Below are positions 15,270 through 63,532 of a stretch of 64,000 nt of DNA, in pieces (positions within the stretch are counted from its first letter, which is position 1; every line of letters begins with the position of its first letter). The translations under genes and the position numbers were made by a program. The notes below the pieces were generated by a model. The model saw nothing but the letters and a program-made list of their open reading frames with translations, was not told the origin of the DNA and searched no databases. The stretch is from Utricularia gibba. Taxonomy: Eukaryota > Streptophyta > Magnoliopsida > Lamiales > Lentibulariaceae. The DNA lies in NCBI GenBank assembly GCA_002189035.1, contig CM007989.1, forward strand, positions 434,001 through 498,000, read 5' to 3'.

Positions 15270-16707
15270 CTAGTGGCATTTGAAGCCATGACAAACCGAT
15301 AACACTATGATAAGGATCAGTGCAATGATGATGGCGAGGACGATAAGCTTTATCTTCATGTTCTGCAGCCACATCTTCTTCCTCATCTTGGTACCTTGCA
15401 CTTTGAAATCTTGTGCCTGCCAGCCCAAAGATCAACCGCATATCAAGCATGGTACAATATTAAACAGAAGAATAAGTAGCAGACATGTCGAATGCAATAT
15501 CAAGAAGATGAATCAACAAACCAGATATGATACAAACAGTCAAAAAACAATGAAGGCCCAAACCGAGTCTATGGAACCTAACATAGTGCAGTAAGACCAT
15601 GGACTTGGGTAGTCCCATTGAAAGAAAATCAAGAAATTTTCAACTTCAAATTGATGGCCGAAGATGAATTCTCAGACCTGAGAGCGAAGGTTCTCAGTTT
15701 TATCCACCAAAAGCTCAATCTTCTCTCCACGATCTAGAACCTGAGAGACAGCATCTGGAGGCTCAGACAATTTTCACGCATACTTCAGCTACTTCAATGA
15801 ATTCAGCAGCATTTACGAAAAAAAGGTAATAAAACAGCATTCTGTATTTCAGTGAACCTTCTCAATGTTCTCCATCATAACACCCTTGACTTCGGAAACC
15901 TGAGCCTTCACTTTTGCAAGCTTACTAATCTCCTCCGGATGATCTACACAGTACTGCATTTGCTCCTTCAACTTGGGTCTGATTGTTACGGTAATCCAGT
16001 TATCACGATGGAAACATAAATTTAACACATGATGATATTACAGAATTAGAGCAAATCTTACCCGAACTCCTTGTTCAAGCTATTAGCAACAGAAGTGGCA
16101 GCTTTCCCCCTCCATATTTCTTAACAAACTCCTCCTTGATCCGCTCGAGAAACGCAATAGGAATCTGCCTTCCAACAGATTCAACAGCCACCACACAATA
16201 CGCTGTGAACAGAAAAATAGATTTCAAGCTCCCGAAAAAGGAGATCAAGTGGCCTGAATCAGCTAGAAAATGCCCATGCGCGCTAGGTTGTAGAACAGAA
16301 ACTGTACTCATTTATGTACCATAACTGAAACTGGCGAATTCACAGAGCAACAATCCAATACCAAACAGTTCGATCGAATAAATGCGTATTCAAAGATCAT
16401 CCAATTCTTGAAAATTCATCAACCCCCACCCAATTAAATAAATAAAAGCTAAACAACAGATAACAGAACTAATCTAGGGATTCGTAGTGAAGACCGGATG
16501 CAAAAATCGGCACATACTGAATCCGTCCTCGACGAGGTAGTTGAAGGTGTGGTTGTCACAGTTGTAGGTAAACTTGTTGTTGGTAGCGGGGAGCTTCTGG
16601 AGACACTGCGCGGCGATTCCAGTGAAATTCCCGGTGAACTCTGTGTACTCGGAGAGAATCACCGTCCCACGCGCCACGAAGCTGTAGATCAACGACTGCT
16701 GCCCCAT
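15270..16707 (-). CDS. VAMP72: R-SNARE VAMP72 (VAMP721/722 type), one-base frame break
   Basis: Minus-strand exons: 16707-16518, 16202-16062, 15978-15858, 15740-15678, 15416-15270; 220 residues when the frame break is allowed for, the family's usual length. The N-terminal longin domain begins [18 protein letters not shown]. The SNARE helix spans [35 protein letters not shown], with the central Arg in VLDRG. A single C-terminal membrane anchor follows the [11 protein letters not shown] segment. VAMP721/722 proteins drive secretory vesicle fusion at the plasma membrane and cell plate. In exon 2 the run at 16103-16110 (G5A3 on the coding strand) is one base short: KKYGGG reads on in a wrong frame unless one base is restored, after which [14 protein letters not shown] continues. 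All other junctions are in phase. Confidence 0.93.
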
Positions 16708-17449
16708 TTCTATCCCCCCCTCAGATCCGAGGAACAAAACCCTTGACGCGGAGTTCCTGGTCGAGAAAATCAAGAAATGAGGAAAGCGAGTCCAAAGGCC
16801 CAAGCAGTAGAGAGAGAGAGACAGACAACACCTCCCCTGATGTTTAGCTTTTACCTTTTTCTTAAATAGAACGAGTTCTCTGTTTAAATTCAAAACCATC
16901 CCAAATTACGGATGTGCCATCGGTCTGGGACCCAGCGCCTCCTTATCGTTTCCCGAACTGAGCCTTTCCATAAGGCCCATTCGGGTGACAATGCCACAGC
17001 CCATTGAAGTACACCAGGCCCAATCCAACAATAATTCTGATACACTGAATTTGATTAACCCAAAATTTTTTATTATAAATACATTTATTGAATTTTAAAT
17101 ATATGATATTTAAAATAGAAATAAATGAAAAAGTTTTTTGGGTATCCAGTTGTCTTGAAAATAAATTATTATAAATTATTTTTTAAATTATGGTGTAATT
17201 GATGAGTCACCTGGGGCGAAGAAAGAGAGAGTGAATGGCTGGTTCTCTTTCCCTCAATCAGGGAGAGGAAGAAGACACCTTTTAGTAGTCGGTAGCGAAA
17301 TTTTCAGACACGATGCCTTTCAAGTCTCGCCTTTTTGTGAACCCTCTTCCTTTCCAACTCCCTCCCTCAACCCCCTTTCGGTTCAGTCATTCAATCATAC
17401 TTCTTCTTCTTCTTCTTCTTGGCGTTCGTGCTTCCTGCTTCCATCTTGC
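16708..17449. other. Divergent promoter region between VAMP72 and the CLE gene
   Basis: Bases 16708-16900 should hold the VAMP72 leader, with an (AG)n-rich tract at 16809-16822. Bases 17040-17200 are AT-rich. Bases 17230-17449 likely form the CLE transcript leader, with a (TTC)n tract at 17400-17420. The two genes are transcribed away from each other. Confidence 0.6.
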
Positions 17450-17668
17450 ATGGAGACTTCATCTTTCAAGCCCCTTCCCGTTCTCATCTTGGTGCTCCTT
17501 CTCGTCGACTCGACGACCGCGCCGCCCCAGGCCACGCCTCATGCTTCTCGGGAGAGGAAAGCTGTTGGAATGGAGGGAAAGAGTCATGGCTTTGGATCAA
17601 GGAATGGGGTGTTCGTGGAGAGTGCTCATGAGGTTCCTAGTGGGCCTAACCCCATCTCCAACAGGTGA
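17450..17668 (+). CDS. CLE41: CLE41/CLE44-type precursor of TDIF peptide
   Basis: A single-exon 72-residue prepropeptide. It starts with a signal peptide, METSSFKPLPVLILVLLLVDSTTA, then a variable basic stretch. It ends with the CLE dodecapeptide HEVPSGPNPISN (codons 17627-17662), one Arg and the stop TGA. That dodecapeptide is identical to TDIF, the tracheary element differentiation inhibitory factor, which is secreted from phloem and sensed by the PXY/TDR receptor kinase to maintain vascular stem cells. The Pro residues are the usual hydroxylation sites. ATG 17450 is the only ATG in frame before the signal peptide; the frame is open upstream to 17231 without an ATG. CLE41 and CLE44 cannot be told apart from this sequence. 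Confidence 0.95.
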   Translation: METSSFKPLPVLILVLLLVDSTTAPPQATPHASRERKAVGMEGKSHGFGSRNGVFVESAHEVPSGPNPISNR

Positions 17669-61426: not shown

Positions 61427-62218
61427 GAAGCCAGCCAAGTCCCCCAGTCTTCCCTTCATCTGTACATCAAACGCCATTACTCGGAGGATTCATTTCTCTC
61501 TCTGTTTCATCAAGGCAAGCCCGTAGGCATCGTCTTGTCGGGGCAAGAAATGAGTAATATTCTAACAATTATTGCGGCCCTTAGGCTTCTAGAAGAGCAA
61601 TTTACAGTTACAGACATGCCCCCCACTACGCACTGCATGTCCCTACCCCCTCGATGCTGCAATAATTACCATAATGTCCTCCAGGCCCACGCCACCATCC
61701 CTAGATGCCCGTTCCGTACCACCCGCGTGATAAAAAAAAAATACAACATTTTTTAATAATAATTTGAAAGTTTTCCCGCACATGTTGGCATATGTGATTA
61801 AATAAATATTCATTTGCGTGACGTATGCATTAATATATTTAAAAACTAATATTGTATCAATATTATTTTTTTAATAATATAATAAAAAATTCCTTACTAT
61901 CTTCTTTTCCTGTATCGGCTCACGTGATAAAAAAAACACGTGGTCATTTATAATAATAATAATACTACTATAATGAATAACATATACGTATTTTTTAAAA
62001 TTAAAATTTTGAAACAAAATCGACAAGTTCACCATTTTTTGATCGGTAAATTTTTTTTTATATAGTTAATAAAATTTAACTATTTGATGATTTCATGTCA
62101 TAAGGTATTTGATTGGATTTTTCTAACCATAAAATCAAACATGACAAACCATTGAGCCGTACGAATGGGCTCGAAATTGAATAAGGGTCATGGAACACTA
62201 CATTCCGATCATCATGAA
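61427..62218. other. Intergenic, AT-rich
   Basis: The first 300 bases are likely the 3' UTR of the CHX gene. Bases 61730-62130 are very AT-rich with runs of A and T. No gene seen. Confidence 0.6.
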
Positions 62219-63532
62219 TCAGGTGTCTTCCGGCGGGAATAGAACGGGAACGAGGAGCCTGGTTAGCTGCTGGGTGACGATCCGGTAAACGGGCTCCGTG
62301 GGGTGTATGCTGTCGAAGAACATGTACTGGTTAGGGTTCCCACACGGGGCTCAGCTCCGTACAGAGCGGGCCGGCTTCCACCACACCGGAGCCGCAGCAA
62401 CCTTTACCTGTTTCCAGGAATCCTGCATCACGAATTTGGGTGTTTTATTTGGGAAAGACAAGGATGAGGGCGATTTGGGAATGATGATAGGCTTGTGGTT
62501 GTTACCGTAATGATGTGGGTTGTGGACCATGTCGAGGAGGGTGGTGAAGATGTCAGCGTACACGATTTTACTTCCCGGGAGCTGGGTTTCGATCTGAGGG
62601 AGAAGCCTTTGGAGTTTCATGTTGTAAGACTGAGCATCTACGTTTTGCCGGTGGATGCATTGGCGGAGAAGCGGCGACCTCGCTGTCATTTGTATCGGTA
62701 GACATCCCAGCGGCGGCAGCCCGGCCACCACGATTTTGCGACCGCCCAGTTGGTACAGCTCCTGTCACTCAAATGTCAGTAGGTTCCGGCCATCCAAAAG
62801 GAACTTCCAGGAAGGTTCAGAGCTTATATGACCTCAAGGAAGGTTTGGAGCTTATTTAGCAGCAAGTCTTGGTACTTGTCAATGGTGTACTCTACGCGTC
62901 TCCTGGGGATATCGTAGAAGTTGAGAACGAAGTCATTGGTGCCGGCGCTAATGATCAGCGGCGACCGGTTGAGAATTTCGGAGGCCTCGCCCTCCCCAAC
63001 GATCCCTCGAGCCTGCGAATGTATGCTCGGAAGTACTCAAGTTGACCGGAGAAGGGGATACCCAGAGAAATGGTTGTCGTCATCTCATCATACCTTTACA
63101 TAAAAAATAAACAGTTGTACTTAAGGCAGTACTTTCACATTTAAAAAGACAGAAGAGTGCGACGGGTACCCTGATCCGGCGGAAGCAAAGCTGACTCCGG
63201 TGAGAAGATCCTCCTCGGAAAGATAAGGATCAAGGAAGGGGGGAACGGTTTCCTTGAGACGAAACATGGAAGCCAGGAAGTCTGGAATGAGCTTGCCGTC
63301 GGTTAAGCGGCCGGTGGGGATGCTGCCTTGGAAGTTGAGGCCGTACGGGGGATGATTGCCTCTGAAGAGTGTGGTTATGAAGTTGTTGTTACCAGGATCC
63401 ACGGTGGAGTCTCCGAAGACGTAAGATCGCCGGAAACAGCGTCTCGTTCCCCCTTCTAGAATCCACCAGAGGGAACCAGAGGCAAAAGAAGAAGACGAAG
63501 AAGCCGCAGAAGGTGGCGGTAGAAGCAGCCAT
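62219..63532 (-). CDS. GDSL-type esterase/lipase, three frame breaks
   Basis: Four minus-strand exons: 63532-63170, 63093-62833, 62761-62506, 62422-62219; about 360 residues after corrections. It begins with a signal peptide (MAASTATFCGFFVFFFCLWFP). GDSL block I is FGDSTVDPGNNN. Then NHPPYGLNFQGSIPTGRLTDGKLIPDFLA and GVSFASAGSGYDEMTTTISLGIPFSGQLEYF follow. Block III is SAGTNDFVLNFYDIP, then KIVVAGLPPLGCLPIQ and CCGSGVVEAGPLC. Block V is NQYMFFDSIHPT, with the catalytic His. Such enzymes are usually secreted and act on acyl esters of lipids, cutin or wall polymers. Breaks: an extra T (or two missing bases) at 63423-63424 before YVFGDS; a G run one short at 63004-63006 inside RRLEGIVGEGEA; and one base extra or two missing near 62339-62341 before NPNQYMFF. 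Confidence 0.88.

What the first reader, a model, noticed from the sequence alone, without database searches (positions are those of the whole stretch)
15270..63532. Many conserved genes carry one-base frame breaks, mostly a missing base in short G/C runs
At least nine unrelated genes are intact except for frame breaks inside well-conserved exons. Sites: 16103-16110 (VAMP72), 24829-24832 (coiled-coil protein), 33137-33139 and 35385-35387 (DUF1680), 38230-38232 (ureidoglycolate-like), 43982-43984 (PBL27), 54210-54213 (POWERDRESS), 56446-56448 and 56750-56754 (TFIIF-beta), 59298-59299 (CHX), 63423-63424, 63004-63006 and 62339-62341 (GDSL). Most are a missing base in a run of 3-5. Splice sites and stops stay intact, so consensus error from long reads is the likeliest cause. 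The less likely view is that the window is a decaying duplicated segment.
Basis: partly seen in the sequence, partly recalled or inferred. Interest (0 to 1): 0.7.

Follow-up and report, generated by a model that had tools for sequence, protein, structure and literature searches.

The report
Long-read assembly errors mimic broken genes
The "broken" plant genes in this window are almost certainly whole genes seen through small sequencing mistakes (mostly one dropped G or C) that occur throughout this long-read plant assembly, so the finding is a quality warning and not new biology.

Summary
In detail: 13 frame breaks in nine genes, twelve of net minus one base and one of plus one (63423). Twelve are supported by related genes elsewhere in the same genome; the ureidoglycolate-type gene has no second copy and rests on its reading frames. 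The POWERDRESS site is misplaced by about 10 bases.

The breaks are not special to this window. The same single-base losses occur in HSP70, HSP90, CHX and cellulose-synthase genes on other contigs. The decisive test was internal. Contig C236 repeats part of C505 with 0 substitutions but 20 indels in 8 kb; C241 against C304 gives mainly 1-bp indels as well. One-base losses in the two large contigs run at 5.3 per 10 kb, concentrated in homopolymers and tilted to G/C. That predicts about 11 breaks in the roughly 21 kb of alignable coding sequence here; 13 were found.

Real decay looks different. An unlisted LTA4H-like pseudogene (28.3-30.9 kb) has stops and indels of many sizes.

Size, contig lengths and literature suggest the Utricularia gibba PacBio/HGAP assembly. 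Published RNA-seq would settle each site.

The parts
16101..16110 (-). VAMP72-type gene, frame break, net -1
   Evidence: three paralogs (C317, C375, C480) have one base more; Longin domain upstream
24828..24832 (-). coiled-coil protein gene, frame break, net -1 in a C run
   Evidence: C317 and C3 copies have one base more
33137..33140 (+). GH127/DUF1680 gene, frame break a, net -1
   Evidence: PF07944 matched by both frames; C3 paralog continuous apart from an intron
35385..35387 (+). GH127/DUF1680 gene, frame break b, net -1
   Evidence: C3 paralog is continuous in one frame through the site
38230..38232 (+). ureidoglycolate-type gene, frame break, net -1
   Evidence: frame change; only copy in the held genome; no Pfam match to the pieces, so the family name rests on motif recall
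43982..43984 (+). PBL27-type kinase gene, frame break, net -1
   Evidence: C317 and C3 copies have one base more; kinase domain on both sides
54195..54213 (+). POWERDRESS-type gene, frame break, net -1, best placed at 54201
56446..56448 (-). TFIIF-beta gene, frame break a, net -1
   Evidence: C414 paralog continuous
56715..56775 (-). TFIIF-beta gene, frame break b, placed only to this interval
   Evidence: C414 paralog has both halves in one frame
59297..59300 (+). CHX antiporter gene, frame break just after an intron, net -1
   Evidence: C321 CHX paralog continuous; PF00999 downstream
63422..63425 (-). GDSL lipase gene, frame break a, net +1 (extra base)
   Evidence: frames; VFGDS motif position
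63003..63007 (-). GDSL lipase gene, frame break b
   Evidence: paralogs continuous
62338..62344 (-). GDSL lipase gene, frame break c
   Evidence: C1:1.81M paralog continuous
   Evidence: PF17900 E=1e-10; stops and 2, 4, 5, 7, 13, 16-bp indels against the C317 copy
22098..23657 (+). contrast: unbroken DEAD-box/zf-HIT gene
   Evidence: 519-codon open frame, Pfam
25995..27182 (-). contrast: unbroken fatty-acid desaturase (FAD2-type) gene
   Evidence: 395-codon open frame, Pfam

Best explanation
The frame breaks are residual consensus errors of a long-read-only genome assembly. Most are one base too few in a homopolymer of two or more, more often G/C than expected; a few are extra bases or losses outside runs. 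They are spread over the whole assembly at roughly 5 per 10 kb. The nine genes are most likely intact in the plant. Shown: breaks on many contigs, indel-only differences between redundant contigs, homopolymer enrichment and a matching rate. Inferred: the cause (consensus calling of PacBio reads), the species (Utricularia gibba), and that each individual window site is an error.
For: (1) Same single-base losses in conserved genes on other contigs: HSP70 on C496, C451 and C255 (two), flanks differing mainly at third codon positions; HSP90 on C451 and C255 (two); CHX on C321 and C508; cellulose synthase on C244; C3 ALOG copy broken where the window copy is intact. (2) Redundant contigs: C236 vs C505, 0 substitutions and 20 indels in 8,025 columns; C241 vs C304, 18 substitutions and 11 indels, ten of 1 bp, in 14.5 kb. 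(3) Rate: 12 one-base losses in the two large contigs over 22.5 kb = 5.3e-4 per base; 21.1 kb of window lies under translated matches, so about 11 breaks expected, 13 seen. (4) 21/24 events in homopolymers of 2 or more. (5) Constraint on both sides of a break: PBL27 mismatches at codon positions 1,2,3 are 2,1,12 upstream and 1,1,11 downstream. (6) Species and method: 100.09 Mb, 516 contigs, largest seen 8.5 Mb, C451 6.82 Mb; U. gibba was assembled from PacBio with HGAP at 88x (PMC5793159) and its Unitig_8 is 6.8 Mb (PMC8333044).
Against: No near-identical redundant copy of the window itself was found, so its 13 sites could not be checked directly; no reads or transcripts were available. 88x PacBio with Quiver would usually leave fewer errors than 5e-4 per base (my knowledge). 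One HSP70 copy has the same break in both C304 and C241, which needs a shared systematic error, shared reads or a real lesion. Codon-position bias is weak in POWERDRESS, so constraint there is not a strong argument. The 21.1 kb figure includes some overlapping-frame matches and is an upper bound.
Confidence: 0.95

Rival explanations
1. The window is a decaying duplicated segment: after whole-genome duplication its genes lost function and are accumulating real lesions.
For: The window does have an ohnologous segment on C317 and an older one on C3, and one gene in it, LTA4H-like, is a real pseudogene.
Against: The listed genes show single-base breaks only, with no premature stop by substitution noticed; constraint continues past the PBL27 break. 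DUF1680, ureidoglycolate-type, CHX and GDSL genes, with seven of 13 breaks, gave no C317 match, and TFIIF-beta is itself a decayed remnant on C317, so these are not spare copies of that duplication. The same breaks sit in HSP70/HSP90 elsewhere.
Confidence: 0.03
2. A mixture: most breaks are errors but a few (best candidates the TFIIF-beta copy with two breaks, or the GDSL gene with three) are real lesions in dispensable copies.
For: TFIIF-beta has another copy on C414 and is diverged from it; GDSL genes are many in this genome; one site is a +1.
Against: The window TFIIF-beta copy runs to a normal C-terminal end while the C317 remnant is visibly decayed. At the measured error rate several breaks in one gene are not rare.
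Confidence: 0.15
3. Real, genome-wide single-base deletion bias in this lineage (for example oxidative mutagenesis), with tolerated frame breaks.
For: Breaks are genome-wide and biased to G/C runs.
Against: C236 and C505 differ by indels with no substitution at all, which a mutation process would not be expected to give; conserved chaperone genes are hit.
Confidence: 0.01
4. Programmed ribosomal frameshifting or transcript-level repair makes the breaks functional.
For: None found.
Against: Sites differ between genes, and paralogs of the same gene are unbroken at the same place.
Confidence: 0.01

Closest known systems
Homopolymer-length indel errors in long-read-only assemblies (as addressed by Polypolish, PMC8812927, and Kastor, PMC12007338)
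   Same: single-base indels concentrated in homopolymers, breaking genes, spread over the assembly
   Different: here in a plant assembly, mostly in short runs (2 to 5) with a G/C excess; read-level proof was not possible
Pseudogenes of duplicate copies after whole-genome duplication
   Same: frame breaks inside otherwise recognisable genes within an ohnologous segment
   Different: pseudogenes show stops, mixed indel sizes and inserted repeats, as the LTA4H-like remnant does; the nine listed genes do not

Membership tests
Long-read consensus indel error | single-base indels, mainly losses, in homopolymers | tested here: met
   12 of 13 window sites net -1; 21 of 24 events in redundant contigs in runs of 2 or more
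Long-read consensus indel error | assembly-wide, independent of gene function | tested here: met
   HSP70, HSP90, CHX, CesA, ALOG on C496, C451, C255, C321, C508, C244, C3
Long-read consensus indel error | indel differences without substitutions between redundant assemblies of one sequence | tested here: met
   C236/C505: 0 substitutions, 20 indels in 8 kb
Long-read consensus indel error | accurate reads disagree with the assembly at the site | not testable with these tools
   no reads available; RNA-seq BioProjects named in PMC10663240
Decaying pseudogene | mixed lesions: stops, indels of many sizes | tested here: not met
   not seen in the listed genes; met by the LTA4H-like remnant
Decaying pseudogene | relaxed constraint beyond the lesion | tested here: inconclusive
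   clear constraint in PBL27 on both sides, moderate in the coiled-coil gene, too few mismatches in VAMP72, weak in PWR
Programmed frameshift | break conserved at the same site in related genes | tested here: not met
   paralogs unbroken at the site

The most novel reading that the evidence does not exclude
A few of the 13 breaks, most plausibly in the TFIIF-beta or GDSL copy, are real recent lesions in spare gene copies of a compact plant genome, hidden among many assembly errors.
Probability: 0.15. Interest if true: 0.2.

Novelty: not a real feature. Interest (0 to 1): 0.15.

Why it matters
If the assembly is the U. gibba reference, a 1-bp loss rate near 5e-4 per base means a 1.2-kb coding sequence has somewhat under an even chance of an artificial frame break (1 - exp(-0.6), about 45%). 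Claims of gene loss or truncation in this minimal plant genome should be checked against reads or transcripts gene by gene; at least one such claim (truncated DCL3) was checked by RNA-seq and 5' RACE (PMC8333044). The redundant-contig comparison gives a simple read-free way to measure the error rate of an assembly.

Tried and rejected
A 32-kb DNA query was over the limit. A first automatic scan of frame jumps with translated BLAST was swamped by matches in overlapping frames; keeping only the best match per region fixed it, at the cost of missing short exons such as VAMP72. The main U. gibba genome paper is not in the library, and no paper was found that reports frameshift errors in that assembly.

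Full report
WHAT WAS CLAIMED.

THE BREAKS ARE THERE. Three-frame translations around each site show the coding frame jumping inside conserved sequence. The window lies in a held genome of 100.09 Mb in 516 contigs, at C1:434001-498000, which supplies related gene copies. Window 7.8-10 kb, 15-16.7 kb and 24-31 kb match C317:855-881 kb in reverse, and 40-58.4 kb match C317:779-805 kb forward, at 67-93% identity: an ohnologous segment with an inversion; a more distant copy lies on C3:3553-3576 kb. DNA alignment shows the window copy one base short at 16101-16110 (three paralogs), 24828 (two), 43983 (two) and 54201 (one). Protein-to-DNA comparison with the C3 DUF1680 gene confirms 35386 and, across an intron present only in the C3 copy, 33138. 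TFIIF-beta (C414), CHX (C321) and GDSL (C1:1.81M, C98, C304 and others) paralogs support the remaining sites except 38231. That gene has no other copy in the held genome. The GDSL site 63423 is a net +1; the rest are net -1.

THE BREAKS ARE GENOME-WIDE. Searching the genome with conserved families showed pairs of matches that abut in both DNA and profile but change frame. Read at DNA level, cytosolic HSP70 genes on C496, C451 and C255 (two sites) lack one base in a short G/C run relative to intact HSP70 genes, with flanks differing mainly at third codon positions. HSP90 on C451 and C255 (two sites), CHX on C321 and C508, and a cellulose synthase on C244 show the same. Most are G/C runs, two are T runs. 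Six cytosolic HSP70 and five cytosolic HSP90 genes, about 18 kb by my count, hold seven breaks. The C3 copy of the ALOG gene is broken where the window copy is intact.

DIRECT MEASURE OF THE ERROR. Some small contigs repeat stretches of large ones. C236:1-8000 and C505:1100254-1108253 align over 8,025 columns with no substitution and 20 indels, 14 of one base. C241 and C304 align over 14.5 kb with 18 substitutions and 11 indels, ten of one base. Indels without substitutions are the mark of the same sequence assembled twice with errors. Counting only the two large contigs, 12 one-base losses in 22.5 kb give 5.3e-4 per base. Against a background where 50% of bases lie in runs of two or more and 21% in runs of three or more, 21 and 17 of the 24 one-base events do (P = 1e-4 and 3e-7); 15 of 24 are G or C at 42.5% GC (P = 0.04). 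Translated matches cover at most 21.1 kb of the window, so about 11 breaks are expected; 13 are listed.

DECAY LOOKS DIFFERENT. In the same window an LTA4H-like gene at 28.3-30.9 kb (PF17900) carries premature stops and indels of 2, 4, 5, 7, 13 and 16 bases against its largely open C317 copy, and a repeat with 90% identical copies on C412 and C505 lies inside it. The nine listed genes have none of this. Mismatches to C317 concentrate at third positions before and after the PBL27 break (2,1,12 and 1,1,11), less clearly in the coiled-coil gene and hardly in POWERDRESS. The window TFIIF-beta copy reaches a normal C-terminal end while its C317 counterpart is a remnant.

SOURCE. Genome size, contig number, an 8.5-Mb contig and a 6.82-Mb contig fit Utricularia gibba, sequenced with PacBio and assembled with HGAP at 88x (PMC5793159), whose Unitig_8 is 6.8 Mb (PMC8333044). 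This identification is an inference and was not tested by sequence. I found no paper reporting this error in that assembly, but homopolymer-length errors in long-read-only assemblies are well known (PMC8812927, PMC12007338).

WHAT REMAINS OPEN. The 13 window sites were not tested with reads. One HSP70 copy shares a break between C304 and C241, so some errors are systematic or some breaks are real. A few of the window breaks could be real lesions; I put that at 15%.

Noticed in passing
window 28300-30900 (-): LTA4H-like pseudogene with stops, mixed-size indels and an inserted repeat at about 28697-29154; its C317 copy (855.6-858.3 kb) looks largely open in the catalytic part.
   Followed up: partly
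window 33130-33140 vs L024 2870-2960: The C3 paralog of the DUF1680 gene has an intron where the window gene has none: a clean intron gain or loss.
   Followed up: no
L028 / L029 (C304:2235301-2237700 and C241:16401-18700): Two near-identical contigs (4 substitutions, no gaps in 2.3 kb) share the same HSP70 frame break, so it is either real or a systematic error.
   Followed up: partly
L067 vs L068 (C236:1-8000 and C505:1100201-1108300): Zero substitutions but 20 indels in 8 kb: the assembly holds redundant contigs that measure its own error rate.
   Followed up: yes
L027 1156-1160 (C3:3574656-3574660): ALOG-domain gene copy with a frame break where the window copy is intact.
   Followed up: no
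L055 (C255 HSP90), about position 990 on the coding strand: A 9-bp in-frame loss in a conserved HSP90 stretch, besides two 1-bp breaks.
   Followed up: no
window 58691-58762 (+): tRNA-Gly (GCC), near-identical copies on many contigs.
   Followed up: yes
window 7800-58400 vs C317:779-881k: Ohnologous segment split into a forward and a reversed block, so an inversion happened after duplication on one side.
   Followed up: no
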